A DNA stretch of 64,000 nucleotides from Hyphomicrobiales bacterium (GTDB lineage Bacteria > Pseudomonadota > Alphaproteobacteria > Rhizobiales > Rhizobiaceae), in NCBI GenBank assembly GCA_900471815.1, contig UICE01000003.1, positions 705,558 through 769,557 of the forward strand, given 5' to 3'. The notes beneath the pieces were generated by a model. The model was not told the origin of the DNA, made no database searches, and worked only from the letters and a program-made list of their open reading frames with translations. Of the stretch, positions 47,067 to 55,496 are shown one piece after another (position 1 is the first letter of the stretch; every line of letters starts with the position of its first letter). Made by a program: the position numbers and the translations under genes.

Positions 47067-47074
47067 GAAGTGAC

Positions 47075-47092
47075 TGGCTCCCCGGGCCGGAT
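47075..47092 (-). repeat. attL core: 3' end of a tRNA, probably tRNA-Asn
   Basis: On the minus strand the sequence ATCCGGCCCGGGGAGCCA is the end of a tRNA: part of the T loop, T-stem, acceptor strand CCGGGGA, discriminator G and CCA. Homology to a tRNA stops at 47093, next to the integrase. Discriminator G with a TCCCCGG-type acceptor fits tRNA-Asn. The complete tRNA should be at the right end of the prophage. Confidence 0.75.
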
Positions 47093-47228: not shown

Positions 47229-48407
47229 ATGGCACGCAACCTGCTCACCGCCTTAGCAATTAAAAACAGCACCGCAGACAAATTGCGGGATGGCGATGGC
47301 CTGTGGCTGCACCGCAGCAAGGCGGGTGGGCAATACTGGGTATTCATTTATATCCGTCAAGGGAAACGCAGAGAGATGGGGTTGGGGCCATTTGGTTCCG
47401 GTACGGGCAATGTAACACTCACCGCAGCAAGAGCTAAAGCTGAAGAGATACGGGCTATCCTCGGTAGGGGAGGCGATCCGTTCGTTGATATGGAAGAGCG
47501 CAAAGCCAGGATCAAGGTCGAAACCTTTGGAGAGCTTGCCGACGCGTATATCGAGACTATGAAATCGAAATGGAAAGGTGCGAAGACAGAAGCCGGTTGG
47601 AAATTGTCGCTGGGCACTTATGCCAAGCCCATACGGAAGCTTGCAGTCGACAAGATCACAACTGCGGATGTTGTGAAGTGCATTGAACCCATTTGGCATG
47701 CTAAAGCCGAAACTGCAGGCAAGGTTCGTGAGCGAATAAAGATGGTTCTCGATCACGCAAAGGCCAAGGGGCTGCGTACGGGCGATAACCCTGCTGAATG
47801 GAAGGGCCACCTTGACCAGATACTGCCTGCTGCCGAGAAGCTACAGCGCGGGCATCACGCTGCCATGCCTTATCCAGATGTACCAGACTTTATAAAAAAG
47901 GTGCAGACTATAAAAGGCAATGGTGCCCGCGCTCTGGAATTCACCATCTTGACAGCCGTCCGATCAGGCGAGGCGAGGGGCGCTGTCTGGTCCGAATTCG
48001 ATTTAAAAAAGAAGGTTTGGACAATTCCTGCGAAAAGAATGAAAGCAGCAAAGGAACACCGCGTTCCGTTATCCCCTCGCGCGGTTGAGATCGTCGAGGG
48101 AATGCGCGAGGTTTCTGTGGACGATTACGTTTTTCCTGGTGCGAAGCATAGGACACAACTTTCTGATATGTCGCTGGCCAAAGTGCTGAAGACATTAAAA
48201 GCCAAAGCGACTGTGCATGGCTTCAGATCATCGTTTCGAGATTGGGTATCTGAAGCTACTGATTTTCAAACCGAAGTCGCGGAAGCTGCGCTCGCGCATC
48301 AAACAGGGGATGCAGTAGAACGTGCTTACCGGCGAGGGGATGTTTTAGCTAAACGACGTGAAATGATGGATGCATGGGCAAGATTTTGCGATGGGGTTGC
48401 CCGCTAA
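47229..48407 (+). CDS. int: prophage tyrosine integrase, DUF4102/P4 type
   Basis: A 392-residue site-specific recombinase. The N-terminal DUF4102 domain (about 5-85) is followed by a core-binding domain and the catalytic domain with the first arginine in TAVRSGEARG (about 245), the H-x-x-R pair in VHGFRSSFRDW, then LAHQTGD and the nucleophile tyrosine in VERAYRRGD. It integrates the phage at the tRNA 3' end. The second repeat before the ATG runs to one base before the start. Confidence 0.95.
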   Translation: MARNLLTALAIKNSTADKLRDGDGLWLHRSKAGGQYWVFIYIRQGKRREMGLGPFGSGTGNVTLTAARAKAEEIRAILGRGGDPFVDMEERKARIKVETFGELADAYIETMKSKWKGAKTEAGWKLSLGTYAKPIRKLAVDKITTADVVKCIEPIWHAKAETAGKVRERIKMVLDHAKAKGLRTGDNPAEWKGHLDQILPAAEKLQRGHHAAMPYPDVPDFIKKVQTIKGNGARALEFTILTAVRSGEARGAVWSEFDLKKKVWTIPAKRMKAAKEHRVPLSPRAVEIVEGMREVSVDDYVFPGAKHRTQLSDMSLAKVLKTLKAKATVHGFRSSFRDWVSEATDFQTEVAEAALAHQTGDAVERAYRRGDVLAKRREMMDAWARFCDGVAR

Positions 48408-48422
48408 CACCCATGCAATCGG

Positions 48423-48471
48423 CTTATAATTATAAGTCGACCTTTACAATTGCTATAACTTTGGTTATACC
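48423..48471 (+). promoter_or_regulatory. repressor gene promoter with operator
   Basis: TTTACA (48443-48448), 17 bases, TATACC (48466-48471) form a promoter. The operator TATAACTTTGGTTATA (48454-48469), a perfect inverted repeat with a four-base centre, covers the spacer and -10. CTTATAATTATAAG (48423-48436) is an extra palindrome made of the same half-sites in everted order. This implies autoregulation of the repressor. Confidence 0.6.
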
Positions 48472-48494
48472 GACTCCAGTGAATGGAGAGATCA

Positions 48495-49016
48495 ATGAAA
48501 TATACATCGCTAGTGTACGCCCTCCACGACAAAGTTGGCTCGCAGAGCGCCGTAGCTAAACTAGTTGGAGTTAGTCAACCCACGGTCAGTAACTGGCTGG
48601 CCGGAAGCGACATTTTCGGAGAGAACATTAATAAGCTGTTGGCTGCGGCAAAGACTGCAGGTCTTGAGGCGGGGGTTGATCGACCAGACAGTATGGACGT
48701 TACGCAGGTGAAAGGCGTAGACCGACGGACCGGAGAGATTACTGATGCTTCTACTGCATTCTGGGCTATCCCAACTGCTTTTTTACGTTGGCAGATGCGG
48801 TCCAATCCTGACAGCGTAGTAGTTGCCGATGTCGATACAGATGCTGTCGGATTCAATCGGGGCGATGTTTTGATTATTGATACCTCGGATAAAGAGCCTG
48901 ATGAGAACGGCGGTATGTATGCCGTGTTTAAGGATGGCAATGTGACCCCAATGGGTCTTTCAGCCTCGCGATCCGGGATCATTGGGCGGATAAAAGGTAG
49001 GGTGACGGCTGTTTAG
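48495..49016 (+). CDS. prophage repressor with S24-like C-terminal domain
   Basis: A 173-residue regulator. A Cro/CI-type helix-turn-helix is at about residues 14-36 (QSAVAKLVGVSQPTVSNWLA), and a LexA/CI peptidase-like C-terminal fold is visible as VVVADVDTDAVGFNRGDVLI and GGMYAVFKDGNVTPMGL. The GGAGAG at 48486-48491 serves ATG at 48495; the ATG at 48483 overlaps it. It most likely binds the TATAAS-N4-STTATA sites. Whether it self-cleaves is not clear, as no Ala-Gly site and Ser/Lys pair stand out. Confidence 0.85.
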   Translation: MKYTSLVYALHDKVGSQSAVAKLVGVSQPTVSNWLAGSDIFGENINKLLAAAKTAGLEAGVDRPDSMDVTQVKGVDRRTGEITDASTAFWAIPTAFLRWQMRSNPDSVVVADVDTDAVGFNRGDVLIIDTSDKEPDENGGMYAVFKDGNVTPMGLSASRSGIIGRIKGRVTAV

Positions 49017-49027
49017 TCTTTATTAGG

Positions 49028-49058
49028 AACGCTCCATCGGAAGATGGGGCGTTAATTT
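49028..49058 (+). terminator. terminator of the repressor gene
   Basis: AACGCTCCATC (49028-49038) and GATGGGGCGTT (49043-49053) form an 11-bp stem with one G-T pair and a GGAA loop, then AATTTT. It separates the repressor from the early promoter just downstream. Confidence 0.75.
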
Positions 49059-49116
49059 TGACGTCAATTATAACTTCTCTTATAATATAGCTTGACAAAT
49101 TATAAGTCTTCTTATA
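49058..49116 (+). promoter_or_regulatory. prophage early promoter with two operators
   Basis: TTGACG (49058-49063), 17 bases, TATAAT (49081-49086) make a strong promoter. Operator TATAACTTCTCTTATA (49069-49084) covers spacer and -10; a second, TATAAGTCTTCTTATA (49101-49116), lies over the start of transcription and is a perfect inverted repeat. A further TTGACA is at 49092-49097. It should drive the early genes from 49170. Confidence 0.65.
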
Positions 49117-49169
49117 ACGATGTGTTTATCCAGTAAATCTGGTGACAACCACAACTAGAGGAGGCAGTC

Positions 49170-49379
49170 GTGATTCCATCAAACGATAACGAACCCGTTC
49201 TAATCAACATGACAGACACGTGCGCGATGACTTCCATGTCGCGTGCTATGATTGATATCTACCGAAAGCGAGGGGACTTTCCGATCGCTGTTCCTCTTGG
49301 AGAGAAGCGCATTGCCTTTCTAAGGTCGGAAGTATCAGAATTTATTCAATCCCGCATCGATGCCCGCAAGGCAGCATGA
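49170..49379 (+). CDS. AlpA-family DNA-binding protein, excisionase-like
   Basis: A 69-residue helix-turn-helix protein: TSMSRAMIDIYRKRGDFPIA and IAFLRSEVSEFIQSRI are the AlpA pattern (about residues 21-40 and 48-63). Members act as excisionases or activators of integrase in P4-like elements. The start is GTG at 49170 with GAGGAGG upstream. First gene after the early promoter; overlaps the next by ATGA. Confidence 0.85.
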   Translation: MIPSNDNEPVLINMTDTCAMTSMSRAMIDIYRKRGDFPIAVPLGEKRIAFLRSEVSEFIQSRIDARKAA

Positions 49380-49471
49380 ACCGCGCACAACGACGCGCGG
49401 CGAAGGGCGGTTCGCGTAAATCCACGCCATCACAACGCGGTGGCCACAGGGAGCGCTTCACCAACCGATAA
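49376..49471 (+). CDS. very small basic protein
   Basis: A 31-residue frame MNRAQRRAAKGG...RERFTNR that begins in the ATGA overlap of the previous gene. Short proteins starting MNRAQRR recur in rhizobial phages and plasmids (from memory). It is strongly basic and could bind nucleic acid. Length makes the call tentative. Confidence 0.5.
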   Translation: MNRAQRRAAKGGSRKSTPSQRGGHRERFTNR

Positions 49472-49485
49472 AGGGGAACAACCAC

Positions 49486-50016
49486 ATGACAACCACAAGA
49501 ATGACAGCAGAAGAACGAGTCCTGCGGGCCGTGTTTGGCGATGACAATGAAGCACCAGTCTATGGACCCGGCATAGTACTGACGCGCGCGCAACGTGCCG
49601 ACCGCATCGCATGGGAAATCTCCACAACCGTCGATCCCGACTTATCAAACACGCGGCGGCGACTGAAATGCCGCGAGATGGCTAAAACTCACGGCGAGTT
49701 AGTTGCTGACAAGCTTTGGGTATACCTTGGCATGGAGGGGCGCGCCAGTCCTTACAAACAAGAACCAAACATGGAGGAGGATGTCGTGAAGTACGTACAA
49801 CACAAAGAACTGATGTGCCGTGTCCACTCAATTTCATACGACTTTGCGAGCAAGACAGGAGTATTGCGCATGGATGACGGCAATTTCTGCGACATGCAAG
49901 GATGCACAGGACTGTTTGAGCGGATATCGCCAGATGTCGAGCGCATCGAGACTTATTCGGGCAACGAGGCGGACACATTCTATAAAAAGACTAAGGCTGG
50001 ATGGGTGGTCGTATGA
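49486..50016 (+). CDS. prophage early protein of unknown function
   Basis: A 176-residue soluble protein, 14 bases after the small basic gene, with an AAGGGG ribosome site. The N-terminal 60 residues are charged and helical; the C-terminal part (MCRVHSISYDFASKTGVLRM) is beta-rich with three cysteines. Codon use and the ATGA overlap with the next gene support it as real. No family recognised. Confidence 0.75.
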   Translation: MTTTRMTAEERVLRAVFGDDNEAPVYGPGIVLTRAQRADRIAWEISTTVDPDLSNTRRRLKCREMAKTHGELVADKLWVYLGMEGRASPYKQEPNMEEDVVKYVQHKELMCRVHSISYDFASKTGVLRMDDGNFCDMQGCTGLFERISPDVERIETYSGNEADTFYKKTKAGWVVV

Positions 50017-50654
50017 GTTCTGTGTTTGAAGAAACTGAGCGAAAATACCCCGGCTCTGCATCGACGGTTGCTCGGAACTGGGAACGTCTCATCCGAGACC
50101 GCACAGAGGCATCAGTGCCATGTAATGGCTGCAACGCTTGCTGTCGTTCGAAGACTCTGCAGGCTCAAGTCCGTGGCGACGAGTTAGAGCGCTTCCCCGA
50201 CGCGGTTTGGAACGACAACACAAATTCATATGTCTTGAAAAAAAACGACGACGGGTCATGTACCCGGTTAGTCGACGGTAAATGCTCGGTTTATGCCGAT
50301 CGCCCTAAAAGCTGCAGCGGATACGACTGCCGGTTTCATCTACTTGCTGGAGTTATTCCAGACGGCAATGACCCAGTAATGCAGGAAGCCGTTCTGCAAT
50401 GGGACGTTCTGGCCATAAAATCTCGCGGCGACGCAGAAATCCTCGCCGCGTATCGACTTGCGGCTAACGACGGTGGGGCGCCCAGCACGGTAGGCGACGC
50501 AGAGGTCAAGTCTGCGCGATGGCGCGAGTTCCTGTCCCCAGTACGCATGCACATGCAATCCATGTCGCTGAACGAGTGTCGGGAAATGTATCGCGATGCC
50601 GACGAAGAAGCCCGTCGCAGTGTCGCTGATGCCGCCGCCGCCTCGGCACGGTAA
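50013..50654 (+). CDS. YkgJ-type cysteine-cluster protein
   Basis: A 213-residue protein with the YkgJ/CxxCxxCC family signature VPCNGCNACCRSKT (about 35-48) and a second group CTRLVDGKCSVYADRPKSC, then YDC. Family members are thought to bind zinc or an iron-sulfur cluster through these cysteines; their role is unsettled. ATG at 50013 overlaps the preceding stop as ATGA. An unusual gene for a phage early region. Confidence 0.82.
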   Translation: MSSVFEETERKYPGSASTVARNWERLIRDRTEASVPCNGCNACCRSKTLQAQVRGDELERFPDAVWNDNTNSYVLKKNDDGSCTRLVDGKCSVYADRPKSCSGYDCRFHLLAGVIPDGNDPVMQEAVLQWDVLAIKSRGDAEILAAYRLAANDGGAPSTVGDAEVKSARWREFLSPVRMHMQSMSLNECREMYRDADEEARRSVADAAAASAR

Positions 50655-50667
50655 CAAAGGGGGCATC

Positions 50668-50934
50668 ATGAAAATCTTAGAGATACGCCCGGAGCCGAAT
50701 GGCTCCGGGGGCAGCGTAGTCGCGTCATTTGACATTGAACTTAGTGACCACCTTCGCCTTTTCCACATGATACTGCGGAGGACGCCTGACGGAAGGATGC
50801 GGTCTTTTGCTCCAAACGCATTCGGCAAGCATGCCGCAACATTTCATCCGGCACTCGCCGAACAGATAACAGAAGCCGCTGTAGCGGCGCTTATGGGGAG
50901 CTCGAAAGCCAATGCAAACCGCAACGCAGCCTGA
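50668..50934 (+). CDS. small prophage protein of unknown function
   Basis: An 88-residue protein from ATG at 50668 (MKILEIRPEPNGSGGSVVAS), with GGGGG seven bases before it. The beta-rich start, the central RRTPDGRMRSFAPNAFGKH and the alanine-rich helical end resemble small phage proteins made next to replication genes. The last 23 bases overlap the primase gene. No function can be named. Confidence 0.65.
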   Translation: MKILEIRPEPNGSGGSVVASFDIELSDHLRLFHMILRRTPDGRMRSFAPNAFGKHAATFHPALAEQITEAAVAALMGSSKANANRNAA

Positions 50935-53116
50935 TACCTCACTAGCCGATACGCGGAGAGGCCTGATTTATCACGGCTACCTTCCAGTGCCCGTACTTGG
51001 GAAGTTCCCGAGAATCGATGGATGGCAAACTCTTGAACCAGTGATCGGCGATGTCGACAACCTTATAGCTGAGTATCCAGACCATGTCAGTACAGGACTT
51101 AAGACAGGCAACCTTGTCGCGATCGACGTGGATATTACCGACGAGAATGTATCGCGCCTTGTGCAAGAACGTGTATCCAAAATCCCGAATGCGTCGTACG
51201 CCTTGGCCCGCGTAGGCAAATGGCCGAAGATCATGTTCTTTTTCCGATCTGCAGAGTCGGGGAAGAAAAAACTAACACCGTTCTATAAAATCAATGGTGA
51301 AAACCATCGCGTTGAGGTCATGCGTGCCGGCCAACAGGTTGTTGCTTTTGGTACGCATCCTGAAACGCACAAGCCATACGAATGGCTAGGCGACAGCCCG
51401 CTGGATGTGGAATTCGACGATCTTCCCGAGATTGAGGACTCAGACATCGAAAGCTTCTTGGTCGACGCCGAGGAGATCATGGCCGCGCACGGCACCAAGG
51501 TTGAGAAGGAAAAGAAGGCGGCACCAATTGCACCATACGAGCCAACCGCAGCTGCGCCTGCAGGTGATGGGATTTGGGCCAAGCTGAAGGCCAATGCGAT
51601 GGCCAATCTTGACTTATGGGTCCCGCAACTTGGCCTGTCAGGAACCAAGCGGTATCAGCAAGGATATTTGGCTCGAGCAGACTTTCGCGCCAGCACTTCG
51701 TCAACAGGCCTGTCAGGAACCAAGCGCGGTCTGTCTGTTGAGTTTTCCCCCCAAGGCATCTGCGATCATGCGGACGGCAACCAAGGGTACAACCCGATCG
51801 ACATTGTGGCTGTGGCGTTGGGAATTACACCTCCGCACGCGGCAGACTGGTTGCGAGGCTTCATAGGTGACGAGCGACCGCCCGCACTCGACAACACGTC
51901 GGCTCTGGTGGCCAACTCTTTAGCGAAGCGTGCTGCCAACGAGGGTGCGCCCCAAGTAGAGGGCGCGAAGCCGGTTCCGATAGAAGCTGCAAACGACAAT
52001 ACTCCACCTGCGAAAAAGTCCCCACCTCCATCTCCTTACCCTGGCATCACCTCGAGTGGGGATCTGGTCCGAGGCTTTGTCCCACCCGATTATCACATCG
52101 ACGGCGTGGCTCAGTCCGGATTCCTCTACTCCACAACAGCGATGACGGGCACAGGCAAGACAGCTGTTCTTCTTCTCATCACGGCCCTGACCGCGATGGG
52201 GGAACCACTGGGCGACTGCGAGGTAGCGCAAGGTCGCGTGCTGTACTTTGCTGGCGAGAATCCCGATGATGTCACCATGCGCTGGATCGCCATGGCGCAT
52301 CATATGGGTTTTGATCCGGATGATATCGATGCGCATTTCATCAAGGGGACATTTTCCATCCCACAGATGTTCCAGAAAATTAAGCAGGATGTCGAGCGGC
52401 TCGGTGGTGTCAGTATGATCGTCATTGATACCAGTGCGGCCTACTTCCGTGGTGACGATGACAATAGCAATACCCAGCTCGGAAACCATGCCCGGGAGTT
52501 GCGTCAGCTTACCACTCTGAAGGGTAACCCGGTTGTTTACGTTGCTGCTCATCCAGTAAAAAGTGCCGACCTTACAAACCTAGTGCCACGTGGAGGAGGA
52601 GCGTTCTTGAACGAAGTTGATGGAAACCTTGTCCTCATCAAGGGTGATACAGGCGTAAAAATGCATTGGCACGGTAAGCACCGTGGCGTCGACTTCAAAC
52701 CCATAATGTTTGGGCTTGATACCGTCACTGCGCCACCACTGCGGGATAGCAAAGGGCGAGATGTTCCAACCGTGATGGCGAGAATGCTGTCCAAAGGGGA
52801 GACGCGCGACATGGCTGCGGTAGCGCGAAACGACAAGGACGAAGTGCTTATTCAAATAGAGAATGGCGCCAGACACCTAGTCCAGATTGCCGAATCGTTG
52901 GGGTGGAAGGACAAGCATGGAGAACCCGATAAGGGTCGTGCGCGCCGCGCTACCGATAAAATGAAGAAGCTCGTAAAGTTTGATGGCGCAAAGTGGCACC
53001 TTACCCCTGCCGGACAAGAAGCAGCTACCGATGCGCGCGCGAGAATGCATCTGGCTAATACTTCAGCGGAAAATACAGCTGCTTTCGTCGCAAGATACGA
53101 GGCAAAACAGCATTGA
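50912..53116 (+). CDS. phage primase-polymerase/RecA-like ATPase fusion
   Basis: A 734-residue replication protein. The N-terminal part (about 15-190) is a bifunctional primase/polymerase fold with the acidic VAIDVDI motif and the late RVEVMRAGQQVVAFGTHPET. A linker holds a twice-repeated LSGTKR motif. The C-terminal AAA_25/RepA-like ATPase (about 385-620) has Walker A AMTGTGKTAVL, YFAGENPDDVTMRWI and Walker B MIVIDTSAAY. It would prime and unwind phage DNA. The DNA behind it is repeat-rich. Confidence 0.87.
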   Translation: MQTATQPDTSLADTRRGLIYHGYLPVPVLGKFPRIDGWQTLEPVIGDVDNLIAEYPDHVSTGLKTGNLVAIDVDITDENVSRLVQERVSKIPNASYALARVGKWPKIMFFFRSAESGKKKLTPFYKINGENHRVEVMRAGQQVVAFGTHPETHKPYEWLGDSPLDVEFDDLPEIEDSDIESFLVDAEEIMAAHGTKVEKEKKAAPIAPYEPTAAAPAGDGIWAKLKANAMANLDLWVPQLGLSGTKRYQQGYLARADFRASTSSTGLSGTKRGLSVEFSPQGICDHADGNQGYNPIDIVAVALGITPPHAADWLRGFIGDERPPALDNTSALVANSLAKRAANEGAPQVEGAKPVPIEAANDNTPPAKKSPPPSPYPGITSSGDLVRGFVPPDYHIDGVAQSGFLYSTTAMTGTGKTAVLLLITALTAMGEPLGDCEVAQGRVLYFAGENPDDVTMRWIAMAHHMGFDPDDIDAHFIKGTFSIPQMFQKIKQDVERLGGVSMIVIDTSAAYFRGDDDNSNTQLGNHARELRQLTTLKGNPVVYVAAHPVKSADLTNLVPRGGGAFLNEVDGNLVLIKGDTGVKMHWHGKHRGVDFKPIMFGLDTVTAPPLRDSKGRDVPTVMARMLSKGETRDMAAVARNDKDEVLIQIENGARHLVQIAESLGWKDKHGEPDKGRARRATDKMKKLVKFDGAKWHLTPAGQEAATDARARMHLANTSAENTAAFVARYEAKQH

Positions 53117-53393
53117 TTAGGTGTGTCTTTTGGGTGTGTTCAACCATTTGGTTTAATAACGCTAAACAGCACGCCCAAAATGCCTACTGTGTTCCGTGTC
53201 GTGTTCAGGTGTGCTTAGTGTGTCTTTTCGTTAATAACGCAATGAAATCAAAATGATAGCAGAACACAGCAATTTAGTCTGACCAATAGGTTTAGGGGTG
53301 TGGATTTATCCACCCCCCATGGTGTGCGTGTTTTCCCATTCCCTTGGGTAGAGCACAGAACACAGCAACCGCAAATGAGGGGAGAAAAACCAC
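53117..53393. repeat. repeat-rich gap, possible prophage replication origin
   Basis: Three exact direct repeats are nested here: GTGTGTCTTTT at 53121-53131 and 53218-53228, TTAATAACGC at 53153-53162 and 53231-53240, and CAGAACACAGCAA at 53260-53272 and 53356-53368. A DnaA-box-like TTATCCACC lies at 53306-53314, inside a hairpin of GGTGTGGA with TCCACCCC. No gene. The place behind the primase-ATPase suggests an origin, but a promoter region is an alternative. Confidence 0.45.
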
Positions 53394-53849
53394 ATGCACT
53401 TTTCTGAAAAGAATCCACGCCTCGAAAATGAGACGCCTATGGATCACGCAGCCAGATTGCTTTGCGGCGACCTAGCTAAAGGAAAGCTGACGGCCAAGAC
53501 CGTCCGCAACGTGCTAGTGTACACCGACAAGAAAATTGAACGGGAGATGAAAGAAGTTTCACGTTTTGTCGTACATAAGCACATAAAGGAGATACAAGCA
53601 CCACTCTTGGCAAGGATTGCCGAACTTGATCTGCTGCTAACGGCAAGCGTTCCCCGCACTGTCGCCGAAGAAGAGCGCCAGAAGGCTGCCGAGGCCATGC
53701 GCAATCGAATTGCAGTAAAAGAGATGGAATTCGGAGCTATCCCTAACGATTGGTCGGAAGAGATATTCTCGGTACCATTGCCGGCACCCAAATTCACGCG
53801 AACAAAACCCGCAGATTGGGATAAGAAGGCGTTGGCGAAGTTTAACTGA
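53394..53849 (+). CDS. prophage protein of unknown function
   Basis: A 151-residue protein, mostly helical, with a charged middle (KIEREMKEVSRFVVHKHIKE, then EEERQKAAEAMRNRI) that may form a coiled coil, and a basic proline-containing end. GAGGGGAG precedes the ATG. Convergent with the minus-strand gene that follows. No family recognised. Confidence 0.7.
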   Translation: MHFSEKNPRLENETPMDHAARLLCGDLAKGKLTAKTVRNVLVYTDKKIEREMKEVSRFVVHKHIKEIQAPLLARIAELDLLLTASVPRTVAEEERQKAAEAMRNRIAVKEMEFGAIPNDWSEEIFSVPLPAPKFTRTKPADWDKKALAKFN

Positions 53850-53858
53850 ACAGACCTG

Positions 53859-54188
53859 CTAGGACCCTATGGATTTTACAAGCCGCACTACTTGCTCGTC
53901 GGTTAGTTCTAAAACTTTTCTCTCTAAGCTCGTAACAAGTATTTCGATCATCAGTTGGTGATCGATCATGACTGTAACATCCCGAGTAGTCGTCTTGAAG
54001 GTAGTTGTTGCTGTTTCTGTCGAGTCTCTTAATGTAACCCCGTATTTATCGATCTGACACTTTGGTCTGCCCCCGACAGTGTCGGACATGCTCCGCAATA
54101 ATCCTCTAGACTGCTGTGTTTTGCCAGAGTGCTTTTCATCGGAGTAAGACAATACGCTTGCTTCAAATCGCCCAATCATTTGACCCAT
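53859..54188 (-). CDS. oppositely transcribed prophage protein
   Basis: A 109-residue protein on the minus strand, against the direction of its neighbours. The C-terminal half (MIEILVTSLERKVLELTDEQ) is helical and well formed; the N-terminus is polar. GAAGG lies before ATG at 54179, nine bases into the frame, which is an alternative start. It diverges from the 54360 gene across a gap that holds two operators, so it may belong to the genetic switch. Confidence 0.5.
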   Translation of the reverse strand: MGQMIGRFEASVLSYSDEKHSGKTQQSRGLLRSMSDTVGGRPKCQIDKYGVTLRDSTETATTTFKTTTRDVTVMIDHQLMIEILVTSLERKVLELTDEQVVRLVKSIGS

Positions 54189-54267
54189 CCTTCTACCGAA
54201 GTTTAATCGTATGATTTCTCATCAAAGTTCTCCACTCATTCGGTGATTTCTCCAAAATTGGCCCAAA

Positions 54268-54302
54268 TATAACTTGACTTATATAATAAGAAAAGTTATA
54301 AG
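54268..54302 (+). promoter_or_regulatory. operator-covered promoter in the divergent region
   Basis: TTGACT (54274-54279), 17 bases, TATAAG (54297-54302) form a plus-strand promoter. Operator TATAACTTGACTTATA (54268-54283) covers the -35, and AATAAGAAAAGTTATA (54285-54300) covers the -10. Both match the sites at the repressor and early promoters, so the 54360 gene should be silent in the lysogen. The minus-strand gene may share control. Confidence 0.6.
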
Positions 54303-54359: not shown

Positions 54360-55496
54360 ATGACAATTGCCGATAAAGATAATCAAGTAATAAGCCACGA
54401 CAACAAATATCAAGCATTCCTAAAAGACCTCGCCCACCGCCATCCACCTCAAGCAAAGAACTTTCGCACACCTTTACCAACAGGCCCATGTGGGTTTGCA
54501 TGGGGAGGAACAGACGCGCCAACTATGCGCCAGAAGCTCCCGCCATACAAAAACGCTGACGGCATTTACGACCAGGGACCTCGCGTTCTCATCAAGGACG
54601 AGACAATCAGTATCTCTAAGCCTTGGTTTATGAACCGGAAGCCCCGACTGGCATCACACGAACCATCCAAATCAACACCAGAAGAGCGCGCAGCAGGCAG
54701 GGCAAGATATACTGCTGTACACGGTGAGAACGGATCTGAAACAAAAGCCATTGCAAAGCTAGTTCGTGCAATTGCCAAGAGACAGTCGATCGGTGATCCG
54801 AACTGTGAACCTCACCGCGGAAATGATGTTCCGCTACTCAGCAACTTGAAGCGCGAAGGCCATGAGGAATTCGCCACCCTTGTGTTGGCCTATCGCAAAC
54901 TGGCAGCCACGGCAGCAATGCAGCCTGTGCAGAGTATGACGCATGGATTTGACAGTAGCATCAACGTCCAGATGCGCAGCGATAAACTAACTCCAGAGCA
55001 AGACATCGAAGATGCAGCTGCAATAGCTGCGGAGAATAACGGGGTTTGGCCGGCGCTACCTAATGGAGAAATCCGCTACAAGAACGAGGTTGTGCGGGTG
55101 AAGGGCAACCAGAAGGACATCGTAGCTCGCAGGAAGAAGCCTGTCGATGCAAGTGGCGAATCCGATAGTGGTCACTATCAGGGGTACGATAAGCTGCACG
55201 AGAACTTTAGCGCGTCATCTATTGATGCGCTTATCGATGCCAAGAAGACATTGGGTATCTTGCGCGCCACGCTGGGTCCATTGCTAACGCCGTTCGAGGA
55301 TGCAGCACTTGCTGGCATGACCATGACGCAGATTGGCAAAAAGGAAGGCTTCTCCATCAAGCCCGACCTCGTTGGCAAGGCCCTATGCCACCGAGCGTTA
55401 GTCAGCCTCAGATGGGTTTGGTATGACCTTGGGACGTTAGAGAAGTTAAGGGCTGACAACGACAATGATATGCAGGAAATTGCCAGCGTAGCCTGA
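54360..55496 (+). CDS. prophage protein with C-terminal HTH, possible late regulator
   Basis: A 378-residue protein with no domain I can name in the first 300 residues, which are hydrophilic and have a QSIGDPN stretch after a basic helix. Residues about 308-357 (LLTPFEDAALAGMTMTQIGK onward) resemble a sigma-like helix-turn-helix of region 4 type. It has its own operator-covered promoter and precedes the packaging genes, so a regulator of late genes is plausible but not shown. Confidence 0.7.
   Translation: MTIADKDNQVISHDNKYQAFLKDLAHRHPPQAKNFRTPLPTGPCGFAWGGTDAPTMRQKLPPYKNADGIYDQGPRVLIKDETISISKPWFMNRKPRLASHEPSKSTPEERAAGRARYTAVHGENGSETKAIAKLVRAIAKRQSIGDPNCEPHRGNDVPLLSNLKREGHEEFATLVLAYRKLAATAAMQPVQSMTHGFDSSINVQMRSDKLTPEQDIEDAAAIAAENNGVWPALPNGEIRYKNEVVRVKGNQKDIVARRKKPVDASGESDSGHYQGYDKLHENFSASSIDALIDAKKTLGILRATLGPLLTPFEDAALAGMTMTQIGKKEGFSIKPDLVGKALCHRALVSLRWVWYDLGTLEKLRADNDNDMQEIASVA

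What the first reader, a model, noticed from the sequence alone, without database searches (positions are those of the whole stretch)
48423..54302. A single operator family covers three prophage promoters
TATAAS-N4-STTATA occurs at 48454, 49069, 49101, 54268 and, with one mismatch, 54285. Each lies on a recognisable TTKACN-N17-TATAVN-type promoter (repressor, early genes, and the 54360 gene), mostly over the -10. A perfect palindrome of the same half-sites in everted order is at 48423. This is a complete, readable repressor regulon including a distant site 5 kb away at a divergent gene pair.
Basis: partly seen in the sequence, partly recalled or inferred. Interest (0 to 1): 0.7.

Follow-up and report, generated by a model that had tools for sequence, protein, structure and literature searches.

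The report
Prophage repressor's operator set
A dormant virus in a bacterium carries the same short mirror-image DNA switch at three of its promoters, very probably the landing sites of its own repressor; it is a new example of a known kind of switch, with a distant site and an unusually shortened repressor.

Summary
TATAAS-N4-STTATA occurs exactly at 48454, 49069, 49101 and 54268 and with one mismatch at 54285; the 4.6-Mb genome has no other exact copy. All five lie between genes, centred 16.5-18.5 bp after a -35-like box. They sit in a 42.3-kb prophage, on the repressor promoter, the early promoter(s) and the promoter of a 378-aa gene just before the terminase genes.

The best new evidence is comparative: the closest repressor relative found (30% by BLASTP) is flanked by TATAGS-N4-SCTATW sites, same geometry, one half-site base changed; 3 of 4 exact places in its genome flank that gene. 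So the sites are very probably the repressor's operators; no binding was measured.

Corrections: the everted palindrome is better read as a weak sixth operator beside a stray half-site; the minus-strand 'divergent' gene is doubtful; one early promoter has a 15-bp spacer. The repressor has lost the S24 serine and lysine, so it should not self-cleave. The 54360 protein matches no named family and may be a late-gene regulator. New member of a known kind; moderate interest.

The parts
47072..47092 (.). left attachment repeat (21 bp), second copy at 89376 in continued window numbering
   Evidence: exact repeat; the right copy lies at a tRNA-Asn gene
47229..48407 (+). tyrosine integrase
   Evidence: Pfam Phage_integrase 2.4e-13, PHROG 1 1e-47
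48423..48436 (.). everted palindrome CTTATAATTATAAG
   Evidence: read; 48415-48445 folds as a hairpin of -9.0 kcal/mol
48431..48446 (+). possible weak operator (two mismatches), 23 bp before 48454
   Evidence: relatives carry a pair of sites before the gene; tentative
48443..48471 (+). repressor promoter TTTACA-N17-TATACC
48454..48469 (.). operator TATAACTTTGGTTATA
48495..49016 (+). repressor: HTH plus shortened S24-like C-terminal domain (ORF opens at 48483; GGAGAG precedes 48495)
   Evidence: PHROG_4 transcriptional repressor 2.3e-8; alignments
49028..49053 (+). 11-bp stem-loop between repressor and early genes, probable terminator
   Evidence: -18.7 kcal/mol; the terminator scan did not list it
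49058..49086 (+). early promoter TTGACG-N17-TATAAT
49069..49084 (.). operator TATAACTTCTCTTATA
49092..49118 (+). second early promoter-like sequence TTGACA-N15-TATAAC
49101..49116 (.). operator TATAAGTCTTCTTATA
49170..49379 (+). AlpA/excisionase-type regulator, first early gene
   Evidence: Pfam Phage_AlpA 1.5e-9
50912..53116 (+). primase-polymerase/AAA_25 replication protein
   Evidence: Pfam AAA_25 1.4e-18, Prim-Pol 4.6e-9
53859..54188 (-). doubtful minus-strand ORF
   Evidence: no relatives in 30 loci
54258..54302 (+). two overlapping promoter-like sequences of the 54360 gene
54268..54283 (.). operator TATAACTTGACTTATA
54285..54300 (.). operator AATAAGAAAAGTTATA (one mismatch)
54360..55496 (+). 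378-aa protein of an unnamed family, candidate late-gene regulator
   Evidence: no Pfam, PHROG, NCBIfam or PDB match; relatives in 11 other genomes of 384 searched; upstream of the large terminase (TerL_ATPase 1.4e-28)

Best explanation
The five dyads are operators of the prophage's own repressor (48495-49016). A dimer binds (T)TATAAS-N4-STTATA(A), centred in the spacer of each sigma-70-type promoter, and blocks RNA polymerase. One site, perhaps with a weak one at 48431, limits the repressor's own transcription; the pair 49069/49101 shuts off the early operon; the pair 54268/54285, 5 kb away, shuts off the 54360 gene, which precedes the packaging genes and is probably a late-gene regulator. 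Shown: the sites, their register, their restriction to the prophage, and a matching arrangement around the closest relative's gene. Inferred: binding, direction of effect, cooperativity, and the role of the 54360 product. Because the S24 serine and lysine are missing, RecA-stimulated self-cleavage should not be the release step; something else (an antirepressor, the AlpA-type protein, loss of repressor) is needed.
For: Prophage-only exact sites in 4.6 Mb. The blind palindrome search of 13 kb lists only this dyad and its shifted forms. -35 register 4 of 5 against 3.3% background. Closest repressor relative (G127, 30% by BLASTP, 37% by MAFFT): TATAGS-N4-SCTATW at 213, 243 and 1322 and one mismatch at 1345 around its gene; 3 of 4 exact places in that genome. 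Three genomes with relatives of the C-terminal half: dyads of another sequence before and after the gene, 3 of 3, 2 of 4 and 2 of 2 exact places. Repressor profile match and HTH. Missing Ser and Lys: 8 of 8 relatives keep Lys and a Ser at that position.
Against: No binding data. The G127 sites were seen by eye; the blind tests did not list them, and the pattern used was taken from them. In the three f40 genomes the pattern is not more frequent than its backward control (3, 4, 2 against 2, 2, 4); only the places tell. The repressor's C-terminal domain lacks about 28 residues, which might weaken dimerisation; the model there is poor. At 11 of 13 loci with 54360-type genes no recurring palindrome was found upstream, and one more was borderline. 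The 54360 role has no direct support.
Confidence: 0.8

Rival explanations
1. The dyads are bound by the AlpA/excisionase-type protein (49170) or another prophage regulator, not by the 48495 repressor.
For: AlpA-type proteins bind DNA repeats (recalled; a related rhizobial excision factor appears only in a listing, PMC11963761); one lies directly behind the early pair.
Against: In G127 similar dyads flank the repressor relative, and the gene after the downstream pair reads as a 104-aa ORF that does not look like AlpA (not family-searched). Dyads flank repressor-type genes in three further genomes.
Confidence: 0.08
2. The 54268/54285 pair is real, but 54360 is not a late-gene regulator: it is an ordinary lytic gene (for example replication or lysis-lysogeny accessory) that is simply kept silent in the lysogen.
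For: 54360 has no named family or solved relative; the distant palindrome is absent at most 54360-type genes tested.
Against: Relatives keep the position before the terminase genes in 6 of the 11 loci with a tblastn match; the best conserved part, residues 285-350, is helical with a short-helix pair that could be an HTH (my reading); in phage AP-16-3 the relative's promoter carries a palindrome that recurs at three other promoter-like places.
Confidence: 0.4
3. The motif is only a shared promoter element (TATAA-rich -10) or chance.
For: The half-site looks like a -10 box; the general promoter scan is near its shuffle mean in 48350-49250.
Against: Dyad symmetry with fixed N4, 4 exact against a shuffle mean of 0.01, absence of exact copies in the rest of the genome, the relative's shifted dyad.
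Confidence: 0.04
4. The repressor is a decaying gene and the switch is no longer functional; the operators are relics.
For: The S24 domain has lost about 28 residues and its catalytic residues.
Against: The frame is open over 177 aa, the HTH is well predicted and four sites match the pattern exactly; a decayed switch would be expected to drift.
Confidence: 0.12

Closest known systems
Lambdoid / P22 c2-type immunity repressors and operators
   Same: HTH repressor, dyad operators centred between -35 and -10, autoregulation; P22 c2 and P22 Cro are among the fold-search matches of the HTH (probability 0.97 and 0.94, but no E below 0.001), and P22 c2 is a weak sequence-profile match (E 0.021).
   Different: Repressor and early genes run in tandem on one strand with a stem-loop between them, no divergent cro; the C-terminal domain lacks Ser and Lys; a pair of sites lies 5 kb away.
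Rhizobium/Sinorhizobium phage 16-3 and AP-16-3 immunity systems
   Same: Temperate phage of the same bacterial family carrying a 54360 relative (36.5% over 61%).
   Different: Different repressor C and different palindromes; the protein that binds AP-16-3's ACAAATTTGT is unknown. Seen: passages of PMC10460002; the 16-3 repressor papers were not held.
Dispersed-operator systems (mycobacteriophage stoperators, phage P1 c1)
   Same: One repressor with sites at several separate places of the genome.
   Different: Here five or six dyads, on promoters only; stoperators are many and distributed across the genome (start of the abstract of PMC9283540 in a listing; P1 recalled).
Rhizobium phage RHph_Y3_56_1
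   Same: Order integrase, small regulator, primase/helicase, two hypothetical genes, terminases, portal; terminase-portal DNA 70.8% identical.
   Different: No repressor between integrase and regulator; its gene in the 54360 position is at best a very weak match (hhalign E 0.0054 but probability 6.7%; BLASTP E 0.35).

Membership tests
Temperate-phage immunity repressor with cognate operators | Repressor gene with HTH in a prophage | tested here: met
   PHROG_4 2.3e-8, PHROG_35 1.6e-7; att repeats and tRNA-Asn
Temperate-phage immunity repressor with cognate operators | Repeated dyad at own and early promoters, rare elsewhere in the genome | tested here: met
Temperate-phage immunity repressor with cognate operators | Binding of the repressor to the dyads; superinfection immunity | not testable with these tools
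   needs protein and DNA
LexA/CI-type self-cleaving (S24) repressor | Catalytic Ser and Lys in the C-terminal domain | tested here: not met
   DTDA in place of GDSM, Lys segment missing; 8 of 8 relatives keep both
Lambda-type divergent cI/cro switch | Repressor and early genes divergent around shared operators | tested here: not met
   both on the + strand with operators on both sides of the repressor gene
Stoperator-type dispersed system | Many sites, also within and between genes away from promoters | tested here: not met
   five sites, all on promoter-like sequences; no further exact site up to the right attachment repeat
Phage late-gene regulator (for 54360) | Match to a known late activator or antiterminator family | tested here: inconclusive
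   no match in Pfam, PHROGs, NCBIfam or PDB sequences; position only

The most novel reading that the evidence does not exclude
One repressor that cannot self-cleave directly holds two hubs of the prophage, the early promoters and a distant promoter of an undescribed late-regulator family (54360), so that lysogeny is released by something other than SOS cleavage and early and late programmes are unlocked together. Phage AP-16-3, with the same gene family and an unrelated palindrome at its promoter, would be an independent case of the same two-point wiring.
Probability: 0.25. Interest if true: 0.55.

Novelty: new member of a known kind. Interest (0 to 1): 0.4.

Why it matters
It gives an orphan repressor a predicted operator of genome-wide specificity, and a relative whose operator differs by one half-site base, so the specificity of this HTH subgroup (SQPTVSNW against SQPSVNDW) can be tested directly. 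A paper on S. meliloti prophages reports that lambda or 16-3 operators were not found in them and leaves their operators open (PMC12429752, passages); a search for palindromes in promoter register can find such sites without prior knowledge. It also singles out an unnamed gene family before the terminase genes as the next thing to test.

Tried and rejected
Blind palindrome searches over 30 related loci plus the window region: with a TTGAC- or TTTACA-linked dyad at two or more separate places only the window and L084 remained; L076 and L079 were one site read on both strands. One search also listed palindromes with low p in many loci, mostly GC-rich words such as CGGCGA; I set these aside by eye as coding composition, without a test. 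L048, the closest relative, was not listed and had nothing below p 1e-4; its sites were seen by eye.

Upstream of 54360-type genes in 13 loci: one clear case (AP-16-3, p 4e-8), one borderline (L041, p 1e-4), 11 with nothing below p 0.008.

The G340 prophage (L084, L105, L114) was first taken as a close parallel. It has a dispersed set (10 of 13 distinct places with up to one mismatch lie within 54 kb), and two early sites straddle TTGACA as in the window, but its repressor is divergent and of another type and the gene behind its distant sites is not a 54360 relative (hhalign E 0.67). Kept only as evidence that such sets occur.

Of 29 loci with C-terminal-domain relatives (L135-L163), 11 gave a repeated palindrome with p < 1e-4. 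Eight were read in detail: L149, L151 and L152 are clear flanking sets; L141, L148, L154 and L159 are only suggestive, some sites falling inside the longest frame; L144 is unclear because the frame picked as the gene is probably wrong. L142, L147 and L155 were not read. The other 18 gave nothing at that cut.

Repressor relatives: genome contigs gave one short HTH match (Acinetobacter nectaris, residues 2-83); viral contigs none with the single protein and 28 short HTH matches with the two-row alignment, not followed up; no match in phage or plasmid records. 54360 in viral contigs: none. Structure search with 54360 uninformative (model mean pLDDT 54.5). One search gave no Pfam match for the window's HNH-like and small-terminase-like ORFs, so those two names are my reading (the small terminase also by annotation of similar phages).

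Seven paper searches listed no paper on this repressor, operator or 54360 family; the library holds open-licence papers only. I saw passages of PMC10460002 and PMC12429752 and only listings of the rest.

The confidence of the best explanation is given as 0.8 (0.85 before for the operator claim alone), because the G127 sites were found by eye.

Full report
What is there. TATAAS-N4-STTATA is found exactly at 48454, 49069, 49101 and 54268 and with one mismatch at 54285. Window shuffles give 0.01 exact and 0.20 up-to-one-mismatch matches on average. In the 4,597,887-base genome the four exact places are these; up to one mismatch there are 14 places, five of them here. The backward pattern gives 8 and 93. 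A search of 13 kb for any gapped palindrome with at least three copies, no pattern given, listed only this dyad and its shifted forms.

Where it sits. The region is the left part of a prophage: a 21-bp repeat at 47072 recurs at 89376 (window numbering continued along the contig), at a tRNA-Asn gene, about 42.3 kb. Order: integrase, repressor, AlpA/excisionase-type gene, small genes, primase-polymerase/AAA_25, a small gene, the 378-aa 54360 gene, large terminase and portal. Phage RHph_Y3_56_1 has a similar order without the repressor.

Promoter register. None of the five sites lies in an open frame of 100 aa; of the nine host one-mismatch places three do not either. The site centres are 16.5 to 18.5 bp after the first base of a -35-like box: TTTACA, TTGACG, TTGACA, TTGGCC, TTGACT. 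Four of five match TTGACA at 5 or 6 of 6; random positions do so in 3.3% of cases, the nine host places in two. The -10 side tells less, since TATAA is itself -10-like, and the second early promoter has a 15-bp spacer. A stem-loop (49028-49053, -18.7 kcal/mol) separates the repressor from the early genes; the terminator scan did not list it.

Which protein. Repressor relatives are rare: 5 of 394 genomes of the family matched, own included. The closest of these, in genome G127, is 30% identical over 220 BLASTP columns (37% by MAFFT). Around its gene lie TATAGGCTAACCTATT (213), TATAGCCTCGCCTATT (243), TATAGGTTTGCCTATT (1322) and TATAGGTTGCCCGATA (1345, one mismatch). The exact pattern, taken from these sites, has four distinct places in that 5.2-Mb genome, three of them here; up to one mismatch there are many more, and the backward control gives 120 and 130 against 16 and 20. 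The dyad has the window's length and gap, differs in one half-site base, flanks the gene on both sides, and at 1345 begins three bases after TTGACA, as at 49101. This is the strongest evidence that the dyad belongs to the repressor, though the sites were first seen by eye. A two-row profile matched 48 of 397 genomes of the order, own included; 39 of 53 listed matches cover only the C-terminal part. In three of them (G534, G471, G505, one genus) ATAGG-N6-CCTAT dyads lie before and after the gene: 3 of 3, 2 of 4 and 2 of 2 exact places, with backward controls of 2, 2 and 4. Their HTH and dyad both differ from the window's, as expected if the HTH sets the site.

The everted palindrome. Relatives carry a pair of sites before the repressor gene. 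In the window the two-mismatch match at 48431, 23 bp before 48454, fits as the second of such a pair. The everted palindrome at 48423 is that site's left half next to a stray CTTATA; an everted pair is not what the same dimer would be expected to bind. It may also be a weak hairpin after the integrase (-9.0 kcal/mol). Tentative, because about 2.5 two-mismatch matches are expected in the window, and this site has no -35-like box in register (best 3 of 6).

The C-terminal domain. In two alignments eight of eight relatives keep the S24 lysine and a serine (GDS in six, GHS and GNS in one each); the window protein has DTDA there and lacks the stretch that carries the lysine, about 28 residues. Self-cleavage is therefore unlikely. 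The loss might also weaken dimerisation; the model cannot tell (pLDDT mostly below 60 there; HTH about 80-92).

The distant site. Two overlapping promoter-like sequences before 54360 carry two adjacent dyads. The 54360 family has relatives in 11 other genomes of 384 searched; 12 of the 18 invariant residues after the start fall in 293-340. In 6 of the 11 loci with a tblastn match it is followed by relatives of the window's terminase genes. No library or structure search names it. In phage AP-16-3 the relative's promoter contains ACAAATTTGT within TTGACAAATTTGT; the 10-mer has three more promoter-like places in the 23 kb examined (4 seen, shuffle mean 0.01, maximum 1 of 100). That hints that this gene shares control with other phage promoters; what binds there is unknown. 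Of 13 loci tested, AP-16-3 included, 11 showed nothing comparable. A paper on phiLM21-like prophages puts a 'transcription antiterminator' near the end of the early region (PMC12429752, passages); I did not test whether it is related.

Verdict. New member of a known kind. Confidence 0.8 in the operator reading, about 0.5 that 54360 is a late-gene regulator.

Noticed in passing
L084, L105, L114 (G340:C1:2556000-2610000): A prophage with a dispersed set of ATATGCG-N4-CGCATA dyads: 10 of 13 distinct places in the genome (up to one mismatch) lie in about 53 kb, several directly after TTGACA.
   Followed up: partly
L084:3405-6203: A helicase-like gene that holds a Hint/homing-endonuclease (intein-like) insertion (Hom_end_hint 7.3e-16, Helicase_C 6.6e-14).
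   Followed up: no
L192 (OP484857.1 positions 39738, 50861, 51014, 59170): Phage AP-16-3 carries ACAAATTTGT four times in 23 kb, each within TTGACAAATTTGT; not the gap recalled for the 16-3 C repressor.
   Followed up: partly
window 51632-51651 and 51707-51726: A 20-bp direct repeat (GGCCTGTCAGGAACCAAGCG) 75 bp apart, in frame inside the primase-polymerase gene (read).
   Followed up: no
L009 (G000:C12:582164): A host place with one mismatch that also has TTGACG in the right register: a possible stray host target.
   Followed up: no
window 50001-50654: Early-operon gene with a CxxCxxCC putative metal-chelating domain (PF03692, 2e-7).
   Followed up: no
L194:9798-9840 (MN988502.1): In RHph_Y3_56_1 the integrase-regulator gap reads TTGACAAAAATGTATGTTTACGTCATACATATAAT, another dyad directly after a -35 box.
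   Followed up: no
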